Shown piece by piece: positions 544 through 12,650 of a stretch of DNA of 40,187 nucleotides (the first letter of the stretch is position 1; every line of letters starts with the position of its first letter). This DNA is from Roseiflexus sp. (lineage in GTDB: Bacteria > Chloroflexota > Chloroflexia > Chloroflexales > Roseiflexaceae). A program made the position numbers and the translations under genes. Below the pieces are notes generated by a model. It saw only the letters and a program-made list of their open reading frames with translations, was not told the origin of the DNA and made no database searches. The DNA lies in assembly GCA_025062325.1 (NCBI GenBank), contig JANXAL010000021.1, positions 1-40,187 of the forward strand. Reading direction: 5' to 3'.

Positions 544-1146
544 TCAACACGAAGGCTGGTCAGAGACAATCTCCCCTTGTGAGCGCCCCACCGGGGCATC
601 CCAACGCCTGGATGCTGAAAGTTCCAATGGACGAACCGCGCGGCGACGCAGCACCCACCCGATCAGCAGCGCCCCTAAGCCAGCCGCGAGCAGTGCCAGC
701 CAGGGCGCTTCCTCGCCGGACGTGGCAGGCAGCGGTGCAGCCGCCTGGGTTGCGCCAGTGCTGATGGTAAACCGGAAGCGCCCCGTCTCGCTGTGCCCGT
801 CAATGCTGGCGTTCTTCCAGTTCACTGTGTAGACGCCATCGCTCAGACCGGGGTTCAGCGAGACGACCAGCGTCTTGCGGTTGGGATCATTGCGATCCAG
901 CGTTGTATCGCCGCGATCAACCTGATTGCCGCGTGCGTCGGTCACGCGAATAATGTTGCCTTCTGGTTTCAATTCCTGCGAAAAGACGATGACCACCCGC
1001 TCCGGCGCTTTCGTGACCGTTCCATTGGCAGGCGGTTCGGAGGAGACATAATCGGCATGCGCTAGCGTGCGACTCGTACTGATGAACATCAGCGTCAGCA
1101 GAGTCAGCATGGCGACGATACGTTTGACGCAGAGAAACGACAGCAT
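544..1146 (-). CDS. CopC-domain copper-binding protein, exported and membrane-anchored
   Basis: 200 residues. A signal peptide (about 1-29, hydrophobic AMLTLLTLMFIS) ends so that the mature chain begins His30-Ala-Asp, as in the CopC/YobA family, where the N-terminal His binds copper. The motif D116-G-H118 matches the second half of the family's Cu(II) site. The Ig-like CopC domain spans about 30-130, followed by a linker and one membrane segment (about 148-167) with a positive stop-transfer tail. AAAGGAG lies 7 nt before the ATG and supports this start. The last 25 or so residues run into repeat DNA and are probably not conserved. The expected partner CopD is not in the window. The likely role is extracytoplasmic copper binding or delivery. 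Confidence 0.88.
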   Translation of the reverse strand: MLSFLCVKRIVAMLTLLTLMFISTSRTLAHADYVSSEPPANGTVTKAPERVVIVFSQELKPEGNIIRVTDARGNQVDRGDTTLDRNDPNRKTLVVSLNPGLSDGVYTVNWKNASIDGHSETGRFRFTISTGATQAAAPLPATSGEEAPWLALLAAGLGALLIGWVLRRRAVRPLELSASRRWDAPVGRSQGEIVSDQPSC

Positions 1147-1995: not shown

Positions 1996-3204
1996 TCACA
2001 GTGTGATCCCCGCCTCCAGAAGAGACTGGTGTGGTTGGACCGTCACCATCCCGGCGCGAGCCGCCCACGCAGCAACGTCCTGCCGCTGGATCGCTGCTGC
2101 CATCAGGTCGGCGAAGCGGTCGGGCGTGCAGGCGAAACATGGTGCGCCGAGTGCGGCAATATGGGCAGCCGCCGTGTGGCTGTACGTCGGATGCCCCTCG
2201 TCGCTCAGGGCTAGCAGCACGATGACCTGCACGCCGCTGGCGATCAGGTCTGCAATGCGACGAATCATCCGTTCCTGCGGACCTCCCTCAAACAGATCGC
2301 TAATCAACACCAGCACAGTCTGCTCGGGCACGCGCACCAGCGACTGGACATACGCCAGCGCCTGTGCGACGTCGGTGCCGCCGCCAAGCTGCACGCCAAA
2401 CAGCACATCGACCGGATCGCTCAGGTGTTCAGTCAGATCAACGACTGACGTGTCGAACAGCACCAGCGAGGTGCGTAATGACCGGATCGACGCCATCACG
2501 GCGGCAAAAATCGATGCGTAGATCACCGAGGTTGCCATCGAACCGCTCTGATCGACGCACAGAATAACTTCGCGCAGAAGACCGCGACGTTGCCGGCGCC
2601 CGAATCCAATGCGCGTCTCGGGGATGATCGTCCGCAACGATGGCTGGTAGTGCTTGAGATTGGCGCGGATGGTGCGCTGCCAGTCTATCTCACTCAGGCG
2701 TGGACGGCGATTGCGTGCAGCGCGGTCAAGGCTGCCGTTCAGCGTCTGACGCGCCGGTTCCGCCAGTTTGCGCTCCAGTTCCTCCACCACGCGACGCACA
2801 ATGGCGCGTGCGGTCGCTCTGGTCTTGTCGGGAATGACATCCTTGAGCGCCAGGATCGTGGCCACAAGATGCACATCAGGCTCAATGCTCTGCAACAGTT
2901 CCGGTTCGAGCAGCAACTGGCGCAGATTGAGGCGTTCGATGGCGTCGCGCTGCATCATCTGCACAACCGATGATGGAAAGTATTGGCGAATGTCATCGAG
3001 CCAGCGCGTGACATGGGGCGCTGATCGGCCAAGCCCGCCTTTGCGGTTATCGCCTGCCGCCTCGCTGTACAGCGCCCGCAGGACCCGGTCCATCTCGCGA
3101 TCATGCCGGTCGCGGAGATCGAAGCCCGTGCCGTCCGGCTCGCCTAACACCAACCGCCAGCGTCGCAGCCTGCTAGCATGCGCGTTGGAAGTCTCATCGA
3201 CCAC
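1996..3204 (-). CDS. VWA (CoxE-like) domain protein of the SWIM-MoxR-DUF5682-VWA operon
   Basis: 402 residues from the chosen GTG start. A basic, helical N-terminal half (about 1-205) is followed by a von Willebrand A domain with an intact MIDAS: DxSGS at 218-222, a GGGTD loop at about 274-278 and ISD at about 303. This layout matches CoxE-type VWA proteins that partner MoxR ATPases. GGAGGAGG (3211-3218) lies 6 nt before the GTG at 3204. An in-frame TTG at 3228 is possible but has no ribosome site. The start overlaps the upstream DUF5682 stop (3194-3196), so translation is probably coupled. It is the last gene of the operon. The likely role is a Mg-dependent protein-binding adaptor for the MoxR ATPase in the cytoplasm. 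The substrate is unknown. Confidence 0.9.
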   Translation of the reverse strand: MVDETSNAHASRLRRWRLVLGEPDGTGFDLRDRHDREMDRVLRALYSEAAGDNRKGGLGRSAPHVTRWLDDIRQYFPSSVVQMMQRDAIERLNLRQLLLEPELLQSIEPDVHLVATILALKDVIPDKTRATARAIVRRVVEELERKLAEPARQTLNGSLDRAARNRRPRLSEIDWQRTIRANLKHYQPSLRTIIPETRIGFGRRQRRGLLREVILCVDQSGSMATSVIYASIFAAVMASIRSLRTSLVLFDTSVVDLTEHLSDPVDVLFGVQLGGGTDVAQALAYVQSLVRVPEQTVLVLISDLFEGGPQERMIRRIADLIASGVQVIVLLALSDEGHPTYSHTAAAHIAALGAPCFACTPDRFADLMAAAIQRQDVAAWAARAGMVTVQPHQSLLEAGITL

Positions 3205-5401
3205 CAGATGCCTCCTCCGCCTGTTCAATCAACCGGAGCAGCGCAAGTGCGCGTTTGGCGCGCGCGTTGTCTATCTGCATTGGCGCCTCTCGCATGCTGA
3301 TAATTGGACCATTGCGCGCCAGTTCGCCGAGTTGCCGCCGCGCTGCTGGCTCGAAACGCTGAAATGCGCGGCGCAGGATCGGCAACTGCGCCACGAACGC
3401 CGGTTCAGGAAGGCTGATCAGCCAGTCGTCGAGAATGCGCCAGAGGTTCGGGTTGTGAATCAGCGCCAGCGCATCGCCGGAGAGAAACCCTTCAAGCCAC
3501 ACGGCTGCCGTCGCTGGCGCCACAGCTGGCGAGAGCGCCCGGTTCATCCGAATCGCTGTCCCGCTTCCTTCGCCCTCATCGTGCAGCAGGCGCGTCGCCA
3601 GCCCCTGGATCAAGCCGTGCGCTGGCATGTCCGCCAGACGGGTAAGGGTGGCGCGCCACGTCTGGGTTTGCGCCTGGTCTTCCAGGAGCGGTATGTGCCG
3701 ATGAACGGCGACCAGGCGCTCGAACAATTCCTTCGCCGCCTCGTCGCTCAATGCCATGCATGCCAGGGGCAGACCGACGCAGACGCGCGTCAGTATCTCT
3801 ACCGCCAGGGTGCGCACGATAGTGACATCACTCTTGCGCACGTTGCTGTAGCGCGCGGTCTGAATAAGACCCGGGAGCGCCTGCATCAACTGTGCGATGT
3901 CGCCAGTCGTTGAAGCGAGCGCCTCGACCCGCGCCAGGACATCGTTCAGCGCATCCGGCAGATCCGCCAGCAACGTCACCCCCAGGATTTCAATCACATC
4001 CGGCAGGCGCCCGGCGCGCAGCGCCTGCTCACGTGCGCTGGCGGCAGCGGCGGCTTCGACCGTATTCCCCAGGCGGCTTGCTTCGATGATGCGCACAACA
4101 AACTCCGGCGCCCAGTCGGTCAATCGCCAGATTTCGCGGAACGTACCTTGCGCTCCGGGCGGCGTAAACGCCTCGCCCCAGGCGATGCCGAGCAACGCAA
4201 GGCGATGAAGAAAACGACTGCGCTCCAGACCGGATGGTTTGCGCAGATCGATTTCCAGCACCGCTGGCTCGTTCAGATAGGGCGTCAGGCGCAGGCGTTT
4301 GAGGGTGGCCTCAATGTCGCGCTGCAACGGCGGCGCTGGCGCATCAGGCGGTACGCTGCCGATCTTCTGTCCGATGATCAGTCGGTTGCGGATCAGACGA
4401 AGAGGCGCATCGTTACCGCCGCAGAAGACTGCCTGGATCGCCTCTTCAATTTCCCCGAGGTCGGGCAGTGACCGTCCGCGCAGCGCAGCCAGCGCCTCAC
4501 TCAGTCGGGTCGCCTCGATCACGTGCGCTGGCGAGAGGTTCAACCCTTCGGCGCGCAGCACATGCGCTGTGCGAGTCATCCAGTGCGCCACAATGTCGTG
4601 TTCAACGTTCCAGAGATGTTCATACCAGCCAGGTGAGTCGATGCCCGCGCCATACCCCGAATGGCGGGCAAGGCGATCATAGGTCCACGGAATCCAGGCG
4701 GCGCGCACATCTGAGACAGGTCTGGCGCGATGGGACAGTTCTAGGAGCAGGCGCTCGTCCGCCTGAGCGTTGTCCAGATCGAGCAGGGCGGGCGCGTGCC
4801 AGGCGCCGCAGACCACGGCGATGTTGGTGAAGCCCTCACGTTGCGCCCGACGCAACGCAGTGCGCATCGCCGCTTCGCGAGCGCGAGTGAGCGCATCCGG
4901 CGGCGCGTGTGCGTCGGCTTCCGCTCGCAACGCGACCATCAACTCCAGGATCGCCAGGAAGAGGTCGCGCACATCGCGGCGCTGCTCGACGACGTGATCC
5001 CACCAGCGTTCGGGGTCGTCATAGCCAGCGGCGGCAGCAATCTGAGCGAAAGGGTCCGCGGATGACGGCGTTTCGTCTGTCGTGGGCAGTGCAAACCACT
5101 GACGCAACGGCAGATCGACAAAATGCACCGGAATGCCAGCGTCTCTTGCATAGCGCAGCGCCTGCCACTCCGGCGAAAATTCGGCGAAGGGATAGAAAAC
5201 CGCCTGCGTCGGCTGCGTCTCGCGATAGATCAGCAGGGCAACCGGCGGCGTCATCGCCGGATCGGCTATGAACGAAATAAGAGGGTCGGCTTCAGGCGGA
5301 CCTTCCACCAGCAGGCAGTCGGGCTGCGTCAGGTGCAGTGCGTGCCGCACGCTGCGCGCTGAACCAGGTCCGTGGTGGCGAATGCCGAGCAGGGTGATCA
5401 T
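3194..5401 (-). CDS. DUF5682 family protein (TraB/ChaN/Tiki-like N-terminal domain)
   Basis: 735 residues. The N-terminal 230 or so residues carry spaced motifs seen in the TraB/ChaN/erythromycin-esterase superfamily: GIRHHG at 6-11, VEGP at 32-35, and GAWHAP at 199-204. The long C-terminal part (about 270-735) is helical and rich in Arg/Leu/Ala. It looks like a repeat-type scaffold. The ATG is 6 nt after the MoxR stop (5408-5410), and the VWA gene starts inside its end, so all three should be co-translated. There is no signal peptide, so a cytoplasmic protein is expected. By family analogy the N-domain may be a metal-dependent hydrolase, but no substrate is known to me. Family assignment is confident; activity is inference. 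Confidence 0.85.
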   Translation of the reverse strand: MITLLGIRHHGPGSARSVRHALHLTQPDCLLVEGPPEADPLISFIADPAMTPPVALLIYRETQPTQAVFYPFAEFSPEWQALRYARDAGIPVHFVDLPLRQWFALPTTDETPSSADPFAQIAAAAGYDDPERWWDHVVEQRRDVRDLFLAILELMVALRAEADAHAPPDALTRAREAAMRTALRRAQREGFTNIAVVCGAWHAPALLDLDNAQADERLLLELSHRARPVSDVRAAWIPWTYDRLARHSGYGAGIDSPGWYEHLWNVEHDIVAHWMTRTAHVLRAEGLNLSPAHVIEATRLSEALAALRGRSLPDLGEIEEAIQAVFCGGNDAPLRLIRNRLIIGQKIGSVPPDAPAPPLQRDIEATLKRLRLTPYLNEPAVLEIDLRKPSGLERSRFLHRLALLGIAWGEAFTPPGAQGTFREIWRLTDWAPEFVVRIIEASRLGNTVEAAAAASAREQALRAGRLPDVIEILGVTLLADLPDALNDVLARVEALASTTGDIAQLMQALPGLIQTARYSNVRKSDVTIVRTLAVEILTRVCVGLPLACMALSDEAAKELFERLVAVHRHIPLLEDQAQTQTWRATLTRLADMPAHGLIQGLATRLLHDEGEGSGTAIRMNRALSPAVAPATAAVWLEGFLSGDALALIHNPNLWRILDDWLISLPEPAFVAQLPILRRAFQRFEPAARRQLGELARNGPIISMREAPMQIDNARAKRALALLRLIEQAEEASGGR

Positions 5402-5407
5402 ACGCGA

Positions 5408-6490
5408 TCAGTCGGTCAGTTCACGGCAGGCGCGATACAGATCGCTCCAGCCATCACGCGCCTTCACCACAATCTCGAGGTACTCCTTCCAGGCGACCGT
5501 ATCGTGCACCGGGTCTTTGACGACTGCGCCGATGAGTCCAGCGGCGACATCTTCGGCGCTCAACCGTCCGTTGCCGAAATGCGCAGCAAGCGCCTGCCCA
5601 TTGGTAATCACCGAAATCGCCTCGGCGGCCGAAAGCGTTGCGCCCGGCGCCTTCAACCGCGTTTTTCCGTCAATCGTCTGCCCGCTGCGCAACTCGCGAA
5701 AAATGGTGACGATGCGACGGATCTCGTCGAGCGGCGGCGGCTCGGCGGGCAACTCCAGCGCCCGTCCCAGCGCTTCCACCCGCTGGCGGACGATAGCGAC
5801 TTCATCCTCCAGCGTGGCGGGCAGCGGCAGTACGACTGTGTTGAAACGCCGCCGCAGCGCTGCCGACATTTCGTTGACGCCCTTGTCGCGATCATTGGCG
5901 GTGGCAATAATGTTGAAGCCTTTGATCGCCTGAACCTCTCGGCCAAGCTCCGGGATAGCGAGCGACTTTTCGGAGAGGATGGAGATCAGGGTATCCTGCA
6001 CATCAGCCGGGATGCGGGTCAACTCCTCGATGCGCGCCAGCCTGCCGGTCTGCATCGCGATCATGACCGGGCTGGGAACCAGCGCCTGCTCGCTCGGTCC
6101 TTCGGCAATCAGACGCGCATAGTTCCAGCCATATCGCAGGCTTTCTTCGCTCATGCCAGCCGTGCCCTGGACGAGCAGGGTCGAGTCGCCGGAGATCGCG
6201 GCGGCCAGATGTTCGGACACCCAACTCTTCGCCGTGCCGGGAACCCCCAGCAGCAGCAGCGCCCGGTCGGTCGCCAGCGTGGCCACGGCGACTTCGATGA
6301 GGCGGCGATTGCCGATGTATTTCGGCGTGATCTCGAAGCCATTGTTGAGCCGCCCTCCCATAATGTAGGTCACGACGGCTTCCGGCGATAGTTTCCAGTT
6401 CGGCGGACGCGGGCGCGAGTCGACAGCGGCGAGTTCAGCCAGTTCATGGGCAAACGCCTGTTCGGCATGTTCACGCAGCAGATTGGTCAC
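5408..6490 (-). CDS. MoxR-family AAA+ ATPase
   Basis: 360 residues from the chosen GTG at 6490. Walker A is GVPGTAKS (about 82-89). The Walker B region reads LARIEELTR (about 151-159), with Glu-Glu where most families have Asp-Glu. Sensor 1 is IIATAND (about 193-199), followed by an arginine-rich ALRRRF element. GGAG (6498-6501) lies 7 nt before the GTG. An upstream in-frame GTG at 6517 has no such site. It overlaps the end of the SWIM gene by 20 nt. MoxR ATPases work with VWA proteins as chaperone-like remodellers, and the VWA partner is two genes downstream. A cytoplasmic hexameric ATPase is expected. Confidence 0.93.
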   Translation of the reverse strand: MTNLLREHAEQAFAHELAELAAVDSRPRPPNWKLSPEAVVTYIMGGRLNNGFEITPKYIGNRRLIEVAVATLATDRALLLLGVPGTAKSWVSEHLAAAISGDSTLLVQGTAGMSEESLRYGWNYARLIAEGPSEQALVPSPVMIAMQTGRLARIEELTRIPADVQDTLISILSEKSLAIPELGREVQAIKGFNIIATANDRDKGVNEMSAALRRRFNTVVLPLPATLEDEVAIVRQRVEALGRALELPAEPPPLDEIRRIVTIFRELRSGQTIDGKTRLKAPGATLSAAEAISVITNGQALAAHFGNGRLSAEDVAAGLIGAVVKDPVHDTVAWKEYLEIVVKARDGWSDLYRACRELTD

Positions 6491-9302
6491 GGTCGTGCTC
6501 CAGCAAAGCGATATCACGGCGCAGCGTCAGGAGTTCGACGACGTTCGTCATAGCGTCGCCCCAGATCGCTGTGCCATCGGATACGACAGCGGCAAGCGCC
6601 TTCTCGATTATCTCAGGAGGAATCTTCAGCGCCAGCAGGAGAAGATGCGTCGTGAACCAGTGGGTTGTCACCCACCCCCGATCAACGTTGGAGAGCGCAG
6701 TTCGATACATCTCAAAGGCCGCCTGCGCCAGGGCGGGCGTCCAGCGCGCATTGCTTTGCAGCGCCAGATAGAAGAGCAGTCTGACCTGATGAGAACTCCG
6801 GAAGCGCTCGATCTGCGGCAGCAGGAGATCGGCGAGCATTTCCGGCGGCAGAAGATCGATCAGCTCCATACACGCCTGATCGTCGAGGAGCGGCGTCTTG
6901 CTCTCCTGCCAGAAGTTCAACAACGCCAGCGCCCAGTCGGCATCGCGCGCACGCAGCGTGGCAGCGGTCCAGCCCTTGATCAACATCTCGTTGAACGCGC
7001 TCTCTCCAGCGAGCACGAGCAATTGATCCGGCGCGAGATGCCACGCGCGCACCCAGAACGATGGCGGCACACGGCTCACGACAGCAGCCGCGAGAACGCC
7101 CGGCTCTATCGCCTGCGGCGCCTCGCCAGGCGTTGCAGGGACGAGCCCGTCGCGCACGGCGTCGGCGTCGAGGCTGTTGGGGGTCTCCACCGAAAGGCGC
7201 AGCGGCGCCTGATGCAGGTGCAGCATCTGCTGCGCGCGTCGCCACATGCGCTGCACAAAGGCGGACTGCGGCAACCGCACCAGCAGGTCGCGGGCAGCGT
7301 CGCGCACCTCGCTGCGCGCATCGGTCAGGCAGGCTTCCAGCAACGGTTCATCGTCATCGCTCAGCCCAACGGCGAGCGTCTGAACGAACGCTACGCGCGC
7401 TCTGGCAGAGTCTTTGGACCATGTGCTGAGCAGCAACTGCCGCGCCAGCGCCGGATCGGTGCGACGCAGCGTCTGCAACAGATGCACCCGTTGCTCAATC
7501 CTGCCGGTCGTCCACTGATCCGGCGAAAGCGGGACGACACTATCAGTCCACTCAGGATTGATCCGCCCCAGCCAGTCTCCGCGCGCGCCAACCACGCGCC
7601 TGACCAGATCGCGCACACGCGCGTCCTGGCGGGCATATTCAAGCAACACAGGCGCCAGGTGCGGCGGAGCGCGGATGTTGCGATCGGCGAGAGTCGTCAA
7701 CGCCTCGTCCAGCAAGGGGTGCTGCGGCGTTCCAAGGATCGTCTCAAATGTTCGCCACACTTTGTACGGCGGATCGGGGCGCGGTTCGGTTGGCGTCGGC
7801 GGAAAGGCAGGACGCATCTCAGGCAGGAGCGCGCCGCCAAAATCGCGCAGGCCCGCCTCGGCGCTCTGACGCAGATACGATCCGGGATCGGCGACAGCGT
7901 GCCACCCCTGATGGGCAAGACGCAAAAGATCAGGCGGCTGGAGCGGGGATGTTGGAAGAGGGATGCGCGCACTGGCGGTCAGCGTGATCATCCGCTGGCT
8001 GGTGTCCCAGGCGGTCAGTGGCGCAAACGCAAACCCATCCCACAAGCCAAACGTCGTGACGGGCTCGCCGCCGCTGAACGACAGCAGCTTCCACGCGGCC
8101 ATCGGTTCGATCGCCAGCGGTAACGCCCGATTGGTGGCATCGATCAACCACCAGTGATGTGCATCGCCGCTCACAGTGACCTGCCGGATCACTGTCGGAA
8201 ACGCCTCCAGCCATGGCGCCCGTCCCAGAGCATCGGCGTATGCTTCCAGCATCGCGGCGCCGTCTGGCATGCCGTTCTGTGCAAAAACAGCGTCTGCATT
8301 GGCGGACGTACGTTGCAGGATCAACGCGCGCAGCGGGAATGCCGCCGGGAAGTATGCCAGTTCCCCGTAAAAGCGCATGCCAGGGGTGAGATCACTGCCA
8401 AACGGTTGCGAGCGTGGCGCGAAGTACAGCACCAGGGCGATTCTTCCCGCGCTGCTCAAGAGCCAGTTGCGCTGCGTCCGCAGCCCGGTCCGCTCGTCAG
8501 TTTCGAGCGTCTGCGCAACAACGAGCCAGGCGTCTGCCCACGTCTCGCCGTGACGGTGCACCTCCTCCTGCTTCATCGTCCAGCCGAGCGCGGTGCGCAC
8601 CTCGGATTGCGCGCCAGCCGGCAGCGCGTTCAGGTGCCGAAACGCGCGAATGAGCAGATGAATACGGGCAAGCTGCCACACAAGACGCTCAGCCCACAGA
8701 TCGCCGCTAAAGCAGGATTGTGCGGCTGTGCGAATCATGCGTGCAACGCCGGGCAGTTGAGCGTCGATCAGCCGACGTGCGCAATCCTCCCATTCGGAGG
8801 ATGGCATCTGCCGAAGCGCCAGTAAGCCGCGCGAGAGGACATCTTCCAGCCAGCGCTCCAGGGTGCCGAGACCATCCGCTGCGCGCTGCTCACGTTGAGC
8901 GGTGCGTTGCGTCGCAGCCGTTGATGAGCCTGATGATGACGATCGAGACTTTTCAGATGCGTTGGATTGCGTTGTTCGTCGTGCGAGCCGATCCTGCACC
9001 CAGGCTGGCGGCGCTGCCGCGGACACAACGGTCGGGTGCTGAACCGCGAGCAGCACCAGCCCCACCGCGTGTTTGCACGGCGTCTTGCGACTTGGACAGG
9101 AGCAGGCGGCAGTCAGATCATCGAGCGCCACGAACACGCGATAAGGGATGGCGCCGCTGCCTCGATACTCACCCCATAATGCCGCTTCGTGCTGACCAGG
9201 GTTGATCCAGCGGTCGGGTCGGGCGACGCTCTGTCCGTTGCGAAATGCAGCTTCATCGCCTGCAAATGCTCGTATGCGGTTAATGTCAGGCAAATCGAGC
9301 AT
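6471..9302 (-). CDS. SWIM zinc-finger protein, first gene of the MoxR/VWA operon
   Basis: 943 residues from the ATG at 9302. The SWIM motif near the N-terminus has C67-x-C69-x6-C76-x-H78, a complete zinc ligand set. A Ser-rich, low-complexity linker follows (about 120-145), then a long Leu/Ala/Arg-rich region with HEAT-like helical character. AAGG precedes the ATG by about 8 nt. The in-frame TTG at 9377 lies inside the promoter -35 element, so it cannot be the start of that transcript. SWIM domains bind DNA or proteins. Here the domain probably provides target recognition for the MoxR-VWA machine. A frame on the opposite strand stays open for 546 codons (6483-8123) but has no recognisable domain. 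Confidence 0.88.
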   Translation of the reverse strand: MLDLPDINRIRAFAGDEAAFRNGQSVARPDRWINPGQHEAALWGEYRGSGAIPYRVFVALDDLTAACSCPSRKTPCKHAVGLVLLAVQHPTVVSAAAPPAWVQDRLARRTTQSNASEKSRSSSSGSSTAATQRTAQREQRAADGLGTLERWLEDVLSRGLLALRQMPSSEWEDCARRLIDAQLPGVARMIRTAAQSCFSGDLWAERLVWQLARIHLLIRAFRHLNALPAGAQSEVRTALGWTMKQEEVHRHGETWADAWLVVAQTLETDERTGLRTQRNWLLSSAGRIALVLYFAPRSQPFGSDLTPGMRFYGELAYFPAAFPLRALILQRTSANADAVFAQNGMPDGAAMLEAYADALGRAPWLEAFPTVIRQVTVSGDAHHWWLIDATNRALPLAIEPMAAWKLLSFSGGEPVTTFGLWDGFAFAPLTAWDTSQRMITLTASARIPLPTSPLQPPDLLRLAHQGWHAVADPGSYLRQSAEAGLRDFGGALLPEMRPAFPPTPTEPRPDPPYKVWRTFETILGTPQHPLLDEALTTLADRNIRAPPHLAPVLLEYARQDARVRDLVRRVVGARGDWLGRINPEWTDSVVPLSPDQWTTGRIEQRVHLLQTLRRTDPALARQLLLSTWSKDSARARVAFVQTLAVGLSDDDEPLLEACLTDARSEVRDAARDLLVRLPQSAFVQRMWRRAQQMLHLHQAPLRLSVETPNSLDADAVRDGLVPATPGEAPQAIEPGVLAAAVVSRVPPSFWVRAWHLAPDQLLVLAGESAFNEMLIKGWTAATLRARDADWALALLNFWQESKTPLLDDQACMELIDLLPPEMLADLLLPQIERFRSSHQVRLLFYLALQSNARWTPALAQAAFEMYRTALSNVDRGWVTTHWFTTHLLLLALKIPPEIIEKALAAVVSDGTAIWGDAMTNVVELLTLRRDIALLEHDRDQSAA

Positions 9303-9348
9303 GAAGCATACCTTGCCGCCAATTGCAGGCTGACGGCGTTCCGGTAGC

Positions 9349-9377
9349 AGTATTGCACATCCGTTCGCTTTTGTCAA
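9349..9377 (-). promoter_or_regulatory. Near-consensus sigma-70 promoter of the SWIM-MoxR-DUF5682-VWA operon
   Basis: On the minus strand the -35 is TTGACA (9372-9377, perfect), the spacer is 17 bp and the -10 is AATACT (9349-9354), preceded by TGC. Transcription would start near 9342 and give a leader of about 40 nt before the ATG at 9302. It lies between MsrQ's stop and the SWIM gene. No further promoter of comparable quality is visible inside the operon. Confidence 0.75.
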
Positions 9378-9425: not shown

Positions 9426-10085
9426 TCACCTGCTCCGGGGCGTGCCGCGAGCAGGGGTGCGCTCGCTGCCGTCGGCAGCAGAGGCGCTGCCGGATGTACG
9501 CCGCCATGCCTCGATCCGGCGGCGTATCGCTGGCAGCCGCAGGATCAGCAGCAGCGCCACCAGCGCGCCAAGAAACAGCGGCTGTCGAATATCGCTCTTC
9601 TGCGCCCAGGCATAGTGGACCAGCGCCAGCGGCACTGCCAGGTACACCAGGCGATGCAGGAGCTTCCAGGATCGTCCCAACCGCCGCTGCCATCCCTTCG
9701 TCGAGGTCAGCGCCAGCGGCGTGAGGAGCAGGAGCGCCGTCGTTCCGACGAGGATATACCGCTTCTCGGCGACTTCCTGCACAATCAGGGGAATGTTGAG
9801 GCCAAAATCGAGCGCCGTGAAGATCAGCATGTGCAGCACAGCGTAGAGGAAGCCGTACAGTCCGAGCGGACGACGCAGGACAAGGACGCGCTTCCAGCCG
9901 CTCACGACGCTTAGCGGCGTGCAGACGAGCGATGCAATCAGCAGCATAATCGCTGCATAGCCAGTTCGTTGCGTCAGGTATTGGATAGGATTGACCGTCA
10001 GGTTTCCGGCGAACGCATCCCACGCCAGCAGCGCCAGCGGCGCCAGTCCAGCCAAGTGGACAGCATGTGTCCAATACTGTTTCAC
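9426..10085 (-). CDS. msrQ: MsrQ (YedZ), haem-binding membrane subunit of methionine sulfoxide reductase
   Basis: 219 residues from the GTG at 10085, similar in length to E. coli MsrQ. The family order is visible: WTHAVHLAGL at the start, GYAAIMLLIASLVCTPL, RRPLGLYGFLYAVLHML, a TSTKGWQRRLG loop, and WKLLHRLVYLAVPLALVHY. Conserved His residues in the helices would hold the haem. About six membrane segments are present. MsrQ passes electrons from the quinone pool to MsrP, whose gene lies upstream on the same strand. No clear ribosome site precedes the GTG. The ORF stays open to 10277, but that part is repeat-derived. The C-terminal tail after the last helix is Ser/Arg/Ala-rich and unlike the family. 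Confidence 0.9.
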   Translation of the reverse strand: MKQYWTHAVHLAGLAPLALLAWDAFAGNLTVNPIQYLTQRTGYAAIMLLIASLVCTPLSVVSGWKRVLVLRRPLGLYGFLYAVLHMLIFTALDFGLNIPLIVQEVAEKRYILVGTTALLLLTPLALTSTKGWQRRLGRSWKLLHRLVYLAVPLALVHYAWAQKSDIRQPLFLGALVALLLILRLPAIRRRIEAWRRTSGSASAADGSERTPARGTPRSR

Positions 10086-10688
10086 GTTGGGGCGGGTCTG
10101 AGACCCGCCTGTATCCTCCGGGTAGGGATGAGATCTAATCACACGCACCTGTTGTTTCGCGTCTGTCAGCGAATAGGGAAGCGAATAAACGAAAAAAGAA
10201 GAACGAATGCGCACTGCTCGTCGCACGTTTCCGGTCTCTCCCCGCGCGCCTCTTACCCTTTGCCTCTCGCCTCGCACCTCTTGCCGCTCTGCGGTCAGCG
10301 AATCGAGAAGCGAAGAAACGAGTGGAAGCGCAGAGCGAATGCGCCGAGCCTCATGCCTCTTGCCCCTCGCCTCTCGCCTCGCGCCTCTCTGCGGTCAGCA
10401 AATCAGGAAGCGAAGAAATGAACAAAATGAGGAACAAATGCGAACTGCTCGTTGCGCGTCTCTGGTCTTTCCCCGCGCGCCTCTGGACTCGTGCCTCTCG
10501 CCTCGCCTGCGGGATGATCCACGACGGACACGAAGCGACACGAAGGACCTTTTCTTGCCACGGTCACCCTTCGCCTGTTTGCTTTTCCTGCTACGCGCCT
10601 CTCTTGCCTCTTGCCGCGCGCCTTATCCCCTCTTGCCCCTCGCCTCTTGCCTCACGTCTCTTCTGCCGCGCGCCTCTTGCCTTTCGCC
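10086..10688. repeat. Low-complexity gap with three imperfect tandem repeats between msrP and msrQ
   Basis: Three imperfect units each begin with a GTCAGCrAAT element (near 10164, 10293 and 10393). A GAAGCGAAkAAA stretch follows, then an AATGCG element, then a long pyrimidine-rich tract built from CCTCTTGCC and TCGCCTCGCGCC words. The tract continues to about 10688 on the plus strand. A separate hairpin, GGCGGGTC-TGA-GACCCGCC, lies at 10091-10109. Several frames stay open here, but their products are only Arg/Ser/Leu-rich low complexity. I see no gene. The insert separates two genes that are normally adjacent. Confidence 0.65.
10091..10109. repeat. GGCGGGTC hairpin, copy 1
   Basis: Perfect 8-bp arms (10091-10098 and 10102-10109) around a TGA loop. 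The same arms with a GCA loop recur at 28541-28563. It sits just upstream of the msrQ GTG, within what should be its leader, so it could affect msrQ translation. No T-run follows in either direction. Confidence 0.7.
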
Positions 10689-11624
<936 letters not shown>

Positions 11625-11720
11625 TCTAAACCTCGCTGTGTCGCACACTGTCGCGTCATTTCAATGACTGACCAAACGACTCTACGCACCGAAGCCAGAA
11701 ACGGTTGTGTCAGCCAGCGT

Positions 11721-12650
11721 TTACACATCGTCGCCGTACAGCGGCGTGCTCAGGTAGCGCTCGCCGTTCGAGGCGGAGATGAAGACGATCAGCTTGCCCG
11801 CGTTTTCAGGGCGACGGGCAACCTCCAGCGCCGCATACGCCGCTGCGCCGGAACTGATGCCGACCATCAGCCCCTCTTCGCGCGCCAGGCGACGCGCCAT
11901 CTCGAAGGCTTGCTCGTTCGAGACGCGGAAGACCTCGTCATAGGCCTTGGTATTGAGCACCTCGGGGATGAACCCTGCGCCAATTCCCTGGATCTTATGG
12001 GGACCGGGCTTGCCCCCCGACAGCACCGGCGACGCCTCGGGTTCCACAGCAACAACATAGAACGACGGCTTACGCGACTTGATCACTTCCGAGACGCCAG
12101 TAAGCGTTCCACCGGTGCCGACGCCAGCCACCAGAATATCGATCTGTCCATCAGTGTCGCGCCACAGTTCCTCGGCAGTCGTGCGGCGATGAATTTCAGG
12201 GTTGGCAGGATTCTTGAACTGCTGCGGAATCCAGGCGTTCGGCAGTTCAGCGGCGATAGCTTCCGCCTGCGCAATCGCCCCGCGCATGCCCTCGGCGCCC
12301 GGAGTCAGCACCAACTCGGCGCCGAAGCCGCGCAGAAGTTTGCGCCGCTCGATGCTCATCGTTTCGGGCATGGTCAGAATGACTTTATATCCTTTTGCCG
12401 CCGCCACGAACGCTAGCCCGATGCCGGTGTTGCCGCTCGTCGGCTCGACAATCACCGTCTCGCCAGGGCGAATGATGCCCTCGCGCTCGGCAGCTTCGAT
12501 CATCGCCAACCCAATGCGGTCCTTGACACTGCCAGCGGGATTGAACCATTCGAGTTTGGCAACCACCGTGGCATGCGTGGTATTCACACGGTTCAGGCGC
12601 ACAAGTGGCGTGTTGCCTACTAGTTCGGTAATGCTGCCATAGATGCGCAT
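11721..12650 (-). CDS. cysK: Cysteine synthase (O-acetylserine sulfhydrylase)
   Basis: 309 residues, the usual length for CysK. PLP binds Lys43 in NPAGSVKDR. The substrate loop TSGNTG is at 71-76, and the phosphate-binding [10 protein letters not shown] loop is at about 175-184. The C-terminal half has [12 protein letters not shown] and [10 protein letters not shown], characteristic of the CysK type. GAGG lies 5-6 nt before the ATG. The enzyme makes cysteine from O-acetylserine and sulfide in the cytoplasm. The gene is monocistronic and divergent from the CpXC gene, with a strong promoter and a palindrome at the start site. It could equally be the CysM paralogue, but the motifs fit CysK better. 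Confidence 0.94.

What the first reader, a model, noticed from the sequence alone, without database searches (positions are those of the whole stretch)
1996..9377. Four-gene SWIM-MoxR-DUF5682-VWA operon of unknown function
Four genes are packed with overlapping or near-touching ends behind one near-consensus promoter. A SWIM protein could recognise a target. MoxR and VWA form a known type of remodelling pair. DUF5682 has TraB/ChaN-like motifs (GIRHHG, VEGP, GAWHAP) that suggest a hydrolase. The combination looks like a self-contained machine, perhaps for protein maturation, stress response or conflict. I know of no established role.
Basis: partly seen in the sequence, partly recalled or inferred. 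Interest (0 to 1): 0.8.

Follow-up and report, generated by a model that had tools for sequence, protein, structure and literature searches.

The report
DdrTUVWX/YehLMPQ-type stress operon in Roseiflexus
This set of four genes is a bacterial copy of a widespread but still unexplained operon, known as ddrTUVWX in Deinococcus (where radiation switches it on) and as yehLMPQ in E. coli, and it probably encodes an ATP-driven protein-remodelling machine built around a hydrolase-like protein.

Summary
The four-gene operon is real. It is the Roseiflexus version of a module with the order SWIM–DUF5691–MoxR–DUF5682–VWA, found in about a dozen phyla; here SWIM and DUF5691 are fused. It is not undescribed. 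The same set is ddrTUVWX of Deinococcus, induced by radiation in D. deserti under IrrE/DdrO control (PMC5552922, PMC2669436), and its core genes are yehL, yehM and yehP of E. coli. No biochemical function was found in the library searched. New here: (1) the ddrTUVWX = yehLMP(Q) equivalence; (2) a structure prediction putting the DUF5682 N-terminal domain in the TraB/ChaN/erythromycin-esterase fold, with near-invariant H9, H10, E33, H202, followed by an alpha-solenoid; (3) RDRM-like operators just upstream of the SWIM gene in three of twelve Deinococcota loci; (4) yehM is a single-locus gene in 97% of E. coli genomes and rare on plasmids and phages, arguing against a mobile anti-phage system. 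Most likely mechanism: the MoxR ATPase and VWA partner remodel targets selected by the SWIM/DUF5691 protein, and DUF5682 hydrolyses them or acts as catalytic scaffold, in stress or DNA-damage recovery. The hydrolase chemistry and target are inferred. No damage operator was found in Roseiflexus.

The parts
9349..9377 (-). Promoter: TTGACA (9377-9372), 17-nt spacer, AATACT (9354-9349) with extended TG
   Evidence: 10 of 12 matches; 1.5 sites per 8.2 kb expected over both strands at the 9-of-12 threshold, so position rather than score is the argument; sequence
9311..9314 (-). Likely ribosome binding site AAGG before ATG 9302
   Evidence: read from sequence
6471..9302 (-). Gene 1: SWIM-DUF5691 fusion (DdrT+DdrU equivalent); ORF extends to 9377 but the likely start is ATG 9302
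   Evidence: DdrT similarity 33% over 444 aa beginning at ORF residue 26
9069..9104 (-). SWIM zinc finger CSCPSRKTPCKH (CxC-x6-CxH), ORF residues 92-103
   Evidence: motif present in 77 of 78 SWIM-family ORFs, the exception being the truncated L003 ORF; C92, C94, C101, H103 conserved
6510..7961 (-). DUF5691 domain (PF18944), ORF residues 473-956
   Evidence: E 5e-97
5408..6517 (-). Gene 2: MoxR-type AAA+ ATPase (YehL/DdrV); Walker A G91-K97, Walker B/acidic E164-E165, sensor-1 N208, R223/R224, R277 conserved; exact start uncertain
   Evidence: 69% identical to DdrV of D. taeanensis and 39% to E. coli YehL, no meaningful match to RavA
3194..5401 (-). Gene 3: DUF5682 protein (YehM/DdrW), 735 aa
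   Evidence: 41% to DdrW, 28% to YehM
4682..5401 (-). N-terminal domain of DUF5682 (about residues 1-240): predicted TraB/ChaN/EreA-type fold
   Evidence: AF2 pLDDT 86.5, pTM 0.86; VIA Z 10.4 to 5.5 only to this superfamily, then a drop to 4.9
5372..5377 (-). H9-H10 of motif GIRHHG
   Evidence: invariant; at least 95% over 98 sequences
5303..5305 (-). E33 of motif VEGP
4796..4798 (-). H202 of motif GAWHAP
3305..4072 (-). C-terminal alpha-solenoid (HEAT-like) region of DUF5682, residues 444-699
   Evidence: AF2 secondary structure; VIA Z about 7-9 to assorted HEAT/ARM proteins, which may mean only a common arrangement
1996..3228 (-). Gene 4: VWA_CoxE protein (YehP/DdrX); MIDAS set D226-x-S228-x-S230, T285, D311 conserved
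   Evidence: 51% to DdrX, 35% to YehP

Best explanation
The operon encodes the Roseiflexus version of the DdrTUVWX/YehLMPQ module. Shown: orthology, conserved gene order, intact ATPase and MIDAS signatures, and radiation induction of the Deinococcus copy (published). Inferred: a MoxR hexamer and its VWA partner form a chaperone-like motor of the RavA-ViaA/NorQ-NorD type. The SWIM finger and DUF5691 part choose the target, perhaps nucleic-acid-bound or damaged protein. DUF5682, a TraB/ChaN/EreA-fold domain on a solenoid scaffold, hydrolyses the presented target or is switched on by the motor. The machine serves recovery from DNA damage, desiccation or related stress. The orthology part alone I hold at 0.97; MoxR-VWA as motor pair 0.85; DUF5682 catalytic 0.6; a stress/damage role for the Roseiflexus copy 0.4.
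For: Conserved order in nearly all of 80 loci of many phyla and in all 17 regions taken from Chloroflexota genomes, where MoxR, DUF5682 and VWA always lie together. Full-length similarity to E. coli YehL, YehM, YehP and to Deinococcus taeanensis ddrV, ddrW, ddrX; that locus is named ddrTUVWX with the same 78-aa extra ORF in PMC9510100. PMC2669436 names Deide_18710 as MoxR-like and Deide_18690 as VWA. PMC5552922 reports IrrE-dependent radiation induction, SWIM gene above 10-fold, and an RDRM upstream of each homologue examined. Here: RDRM-like sites with 0-1 mismatch near the SWIM start in 3 of 12 Deinococcota loci. Fold of DUF5682 N-terminus with H9, H10, E33, H202 kept even in YehM and in divergent 900-aa copies.
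Against: No enzyme activity, target or deletion phenotype is known. Fold class is shared by non-enzymes (haem-binding ChaN; a structural TraB-family subunit in Tetrahymena complex IV, PMC10060162). Profile-profile comparison with TraB and erythromycin-esterase families is weak (probability 19% and 0.5%). No RDRM upstream in the window (best 4 mismatches), no enrichment of SOS boxes outside Deinococcota. D. radiodurans and D. geothermalis lack the operon (PMC5552922), so it is not needed for radiation resistance as such.
Confidence: 0.45

Rival explanations
1. Maturation chaperone: MoxR and VWA activate a dedicated client complex, and DUF5682 is itself the client or a cofactor-binding (metal, haem) co-chaperone rather than a hydrolase, as in NorQ-NorD with nitric oxide reductase or CoxD with CO dehydrogenase.
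For: All characterised MoxR-VWA pairs work this way (PMC3893208, PMC9976466). ChaN, second-best fold family (Z 9.0), binds haem. DUF5682 sits next to MoxR and VWA in almost every locus, as clients do.
Against: No flanking metabolic enzyme is conserved with the module. Radiation control of the Deinococcus copy does not suggest enzyme maturation.
Confidence: 0.3
2. Biological-conflict (anti-phage or programmed-death) ternary system related to the vWA-MoxR-VMAP systems.
For: MoxR-vWA ternary systems of multicellular bacteria are proposed conflict systems (PMC7159879); many carriers here are filamentous or multicellular; distribution in Chloroflexota is patchy, 42 of 301 genomes.
Against: yehM is present in 5284 of 5426 E. 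coli genomes, one chromosomal locus in each as a rule; 36 of 72,556 plasmids and one unverified phage record hold it; no PADLOC match; slow evolution (MoxR 69% identical between phyla); no VMAP or effector domain.
Confidence: 0.12
3. Nucleic-acid repair machine proper: SWIM binds DNA or RNA and the complex acts directly on damaged nucleic acid or on nucleoprotein intermediates, with DUF5682 as structural scaffold.
For: RDR regulon neighbours are recA, ruvB, uvrB (PMC5552922); SWIM fingers can bind DNA or protein (own knowledge); RtcB RNA ligase genes lie within the fetched flanks of four loci and an RtcB gene is also radiation-induced in D. deserti.
Against: No nuclease, ligase or helicase domain in the module. 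The RtcB genes lie at variable distance and orientation.
Confidence: 0.13

Closest known systems
ddrTUVWX operon of Deinococcus (D. deserti Deide_18730-18690; D. taeanensis LAJ19_RS15970-15995)
   Same: Same five families in the same order; MoxR 69%, VWA 51%, DUF5682 41%, SWIM 33% identical
   Different: SWIM and DUF5691 are fused in Roseiflexus; no RDRM in the window's promoter region; Deinococcus copies are under IrrE/DdrO control
yehLMPQ operon of Escherichia coli
   Same: MoxR, DUF5682 and VWA orthologues in one run of genes with a SWIM protein
   Different: SWIM gene is last, YehQ is only distantly related and has two SWIM motifs and no DUF5691; DUF4132 gene yehI lies upstream
RavA-ViaA, NorQ-NorD, CoxD-CoxE MoxR/VWA chaperone pairs
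   Same: AAA+ MoxR with intact motifs plus a VWA/CoxE protein with MIDAS
   Different: Different MoxR subfamily: YehL match E 5e-72, RavA no significant match; has DUF5682 and SWIM partners
TraB / ChaN / erythromycin-esterase fold superfamily
   Same: Predicted fold of DUF5682 residues 1-214 or 1-255; conserved His near strand 1, Glu after strand 2, GxxH near the end
   Different: No Pfam match to PF01963, PF05139 or PF04187; large alpha-solenoid extension; activity unknown
vWA-MoxR-VMAP ternary systems
   Same: MoxR and vWA with a third conserved component
   Different: No VMAP, no effector domains, conserved in a core genome

Membership tests
ddrTUVWX/yehLMPQ module | MoxR, DUF5682 and VWA genes adjacent, with SWIM (and usually DUF5691) gene | tested here: met
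ddrTUVWX as RDR regulon member | RDRM operator upstream of the first gene | tested here: not met
   best site within 400 bp upstream has 4 mismatches of 10. It is an orthologue of the operon, not shown to be a regulon member
MoxR AAA+ ATPases, YehL subfamily | Walker A/B, sensor 1, arginine residues, and closest similarity to YehL rather than RavA | tested here: met
   no subfamily tree was built
VWA/CoxE co-chaperones | VWA_CoxE domain with complete MIDAS DxSxS...T...D | tested here: met
VWA/CoxE co-chaperones | Physical interaction with the MoxR partner | not testable with these tools
   no complex prediction available
TraB/ChaN/EreA fold superfamily (DUF5682 N-terminus) | Characteristic alpha/beta fold | tested here: met
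   predicted model only: Tetrahymena complex IV subunit Z 10.4, rmsd 4.9, 179 aligned; ChaN Z 9.0, 4.8, 152; HopBA1 Z 7.7, 3.5, 140; EreC Z 6.8, 3.7, 155; next unrelated 4.9. Foldseek alone: best E 1.3e-3
TraB/ChaN/EreA fold superfamily (DUF5682 N-terminus) | Sequence relationship to a named family of the superfamily | tested here: inconclusive
   hhalign probability 19% (TraB, aligned on the GAxH motif) and 0.5% (erythromycin esterase); no Pfam match
TraB/ChaN/EreA fold superfamily (DUF5682 N-terminus) | Hydrolase activity | not testable with these tools
   needs biochemistry; the superfamily includes non-enzymes
vWA-MoxR-VMAP conflict systems | VMAP component and effector domains | tested here: not met
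   (only DUF5682, DUF5691, SWIM, AAA_5, VWA_CoxE; bpMoxR below its cut-off)
Known anti-phage systems | Match to a PADLOC model | tested here: not met
   no matches at E 0.01

The most novel reading that the evidence does not exclude
The module is a new class of AAA+-driven hydrolase machine: a MoxR-VWA motor that feeds or activates a TraB/EreA-fold hydrolase (DUF5682) on targets picked by a SWIM/DUF5691 adaptor, used across bacteria, from E. coli to Deinococcus, to clear specific proteins after DNA damage or related stress.
Probability: 0.25. Interest if true: 0.75.

Novelty: new member of a known kind. Interest (0 to 1): 0.5.

Why it matters
The module sits in nearly every E. coli genome and in many other phyla, yet no function is known. 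Tying the E. coli operon to a radiation-induced Deinococcus operon gives the uncharacterised yehLMPQ genes a concrete condition to test. A predicted hydrolase-type domain with four near-invariant residues gives exact mutations to make. If a hydrolase is driven by a MoxR-VWA pair, that would widen what this ATPase family is known to do.

Tried and rejected
LexA/SOS boxes of four types and the RDRM upstream of 92 modules: no enrichment over shuffles; the Deinococcota sites came from a separate set. Shared inverted repeats upstream within Chloroflexota, Bacteroidota or Proteobacteria: none above shuffles. Sequence-profile link of DUF5682 to TraB or erythromycin esterases: weak. Foldseek on the whole DUF5682 model: swamped by helical repeats, solved by folding residues 1-266 alone. 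DUF5691 against the DUF5682 solenoid and against the HEAT protein of L086: no relation found, so the solenoid nature of DUF5691 is not claimed. Flanking genes: not conserved beyond close relatives, except DUF4132 (YehI) downstream in 6 Bacteroidota loci and upstream in E. coli. RtcB near four loci at 1-6 kb: not pursued. PADLOC scan of 94 neighbours: scattered restriction-modification hits, no control set, so not used either way. Literature on yehQ (butanol, PMC6442406) and yehM (copper, PMC12409786): incidental mutations in evolved strains; no yeh gene in an evolved radiation-resistant E. coli study (PMC3939492).
Full report
Observation. Four genes lie on the minus strand at 1996-9377. Pfam identifies a SWIM finger and a DUF5691 domain in one ORF, a MoxR-type AAA_5 ATPase, a full-length DUF5682 protein and a VWA_CoxE protein. 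It overlaps the ORF's nominal TTG start, so the coding start must lie downstream; ATG 9302 behind AAGG fits, and similarity to DdrT begins at exactly that residue. The only real omission is DUF5691: the first gene is a fusion of two genes that are separate in most relatives, including a genome of the same genus (L088). The 98%-identical Roseiflexus SKYG45 contig carries the same fusion as far as it reaches (L003).

Not chance. In 80 loci fetched by DUF5682 similarity the order SWIM-DUF5691-MoxR-DUF5682-VWA recurs in Chloroflexota, Bacteroidota, Proteobacteria, Acidobacteriota, Cyanobacteria, Planctomycetota, Verrucomicrobiota, Actinomycetota and Deinococcota. A less biased test used one sample of 301 Chloroflexota genomes: 42 hold DUF5682, 31 hold DUF5691 over cut-off, 29 hold both (4.3 expected, p 5e-28), and 25 of the 29 have the two on one contig within 1.1-3.9 kb. 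In 17 of these genome regions MoxR and VWA lie beside DUF5682 every time, even where DUF5682 is so divergent that only two short stretches match the Pfam model (L083, L084, L099: order finger protein-X-VWA-MoxR-DUF5682). There the small first ORF carries a degenerate-looking C...C...CxH stretch read by eye. The invariant core is therefore MoxR-DUF5682-VWA; the target-recognition part varies.

What it is. In E. coli K-12 the orthologues are yehL, yehM and yehP, followed by the SWIM gene yehQ. YehQ itself shows no significant similarity to the window SWIM protein beyond the finger. In Deinococcus the set is ddrTUVWX. The link is firm: D. taeanensis plasmid genes SWIM, DUF5691, AAA, a 78-aa ORF, DUF5682, VWA are the locus that PMC9510100 calls ddrTUVWX with a 78-aa insertion between ddrV and ddrW. 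PMC2669436 gives Deide_18710 as MoxR-like and Deide_18690 as VWA, and proposes a chaperone system. PMC5552922 shows that the D. deserti operon is among the most highly radiation-induced, in an IrrE/DdrO-dependent way, with an RDRM operator upstream wherever homologues were examined. I found no paper that joins the E. coli and Deinococcus operons, within the open-access library searched.

Regulation, tested here. RDRM-like sites (TTATG-N7-CATAA, 0-1 mismatch) lie within about 110 bp upstream of the SWIM ORF start in three of twelve Deinococcota loci: L143, L162 and L166, the last with a perfect match; three more such sites occur in the rest of about 120 kb. Outside Deinococcota no RDRM or SOS-box enrichment was seen, and the window has none. 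The damage link is therefore established for Deinococcus only.

DUF5682. AlphaFold2 on 58 relatives gave a confident model (pLDDT 89.0): an alpha/beta N-terminal domain and a long helical C-terminal part. Folded alone, residues 1-266 (pLDDT 86.5, pTM 0.86) matched, by VIA-align, a Tetrahymena complex IV subunit (Z 10.4), ChaN (9.0), HopBA1 (7.7), EreC (6.8), the Bacillus BcR135 family (6.5-6.7) and 6a7h/6a8j (5.5-6.0), then a gap to 4.9. PMC10060162 reports a TraB-family protein in that complex IV; that the matched chain is that subunit is my inference. That 6a7h/6a8j also belong to this fold class is own knowledge. All top rows thus fit one superfamily, TraB/ChaN/erythromycin esterase. Foldseek by itself is weaker (best E 1.3e-3) and profile comparison is weak, so the assignment rests on the predicted fold plus the position of the conserved residues. 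The C-terminal region resembles HEAT-type solenoids, a match too generic to say more.

The other proteins. MoxR has all ATPase motifs and is 69% identical to DdrV. VWA has a complete MIDAS. The SWIM ligands are conserved in nearly all members. DUF5691 remains unexplained; its most conserved stretch is around residues 597-638.

Mechanism. Known MoxR-VWA pairs act as chaperone-like remodellers for specific complexes (PMC3893208, PMC9976466). The simplest reading is that this pair is the motor, SWIM/DUF5691 recognises the target, and DUF5682 is the catalytic or cofactor-bearing part. The steps up to 'motor pair plus DUF5682 core, radiation-induced in Deinococcus' are shown or published; hydrolysis, target and the role in Roseiflexus are inferred.

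Against a defence role. yehM is in 5284 of 5426 complete E. coli genomes (5166 with at least 80% of the gene in one place), on the chromosome. Only 36 of 72,556 plasmid records and one unverified phage record hold the protein; that phage record carries MoxR, DUF5682, VWA and an MgsA-type AAA+ protein and may be bacterial DNA. No PADLOC match.

Verdict. A real, widely conserved, already named but functionally unsolved operon. The value of this finding lies in joining three separate literatures or annotations (ddrTUVWX, yehLMPQ, the TraB/ChaN/EreA fold) into one testable hypothesis.

Noticed in passing
window 9426-11648, minus strand: Immediately upstream of the operon are genes that read, by eye, like a methionine-sulfoxide reductase pair (MsrQ-like membrane protein 9426-10277, MsrP-like molybdoenzyme 10689-11648). 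The neighbourhood is not conserved in other genomes.
   Followed up: no
window 544-1146 and 11721-12650, minus strand: By eye, a CopC-like copper protein and a cysteine-synthase-like protein flank the region.
   Followed up: no
L042, L043, L044, L062, L072, L080 downstream of VWA; L002 upstream of yehL: DUF4132 (YehI) genes recur next to the module in Bacteroidota and in E. coli, twice in tandem in L062; a possible sixth component. Absent from the window's genome.
   Followed up: partly
L004:1-828, L054:16621-18024, L065:1973-3397, L076:16569-17972: RtcB RNA ligase genes lie near four modules (two phyla). PMC5552922 also lists an RtcB gene as radiation-induced.
   Followed up: partly
L083, L084, L099: A divergent 900-aa DUF5682 subfamily in one genus of the same order, with VWA-MoxR-DUF5682 order and a 160-aa finger-like ORF plus a 452-aa ORF without Pfam match.
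   Followed up: partly
L142 (MT835988.1): A record labelled as bacteriophage from human faeces holds MoxR-DUF5682-VWA, MgsA-type AAA+ and DUF5717 genes; it is probably bacterial DNA mislabelled as phage.
   Followed up: partly
L166:13743-13759: A perfect RDRM-like site upstream of the SWIM gene in Calidithermus chliarophilus, outside the genus Deinococcus, suggests IrrE/DdrO-type control may reach further within the phylum.
   Followed up: no
L014, L008, L015, L059: Loci in which DUF5682 stands without detectable partners in the fetched flank; some are contig ends, but L014 (cyanobacterium) has full flanks.
   Followed up: no
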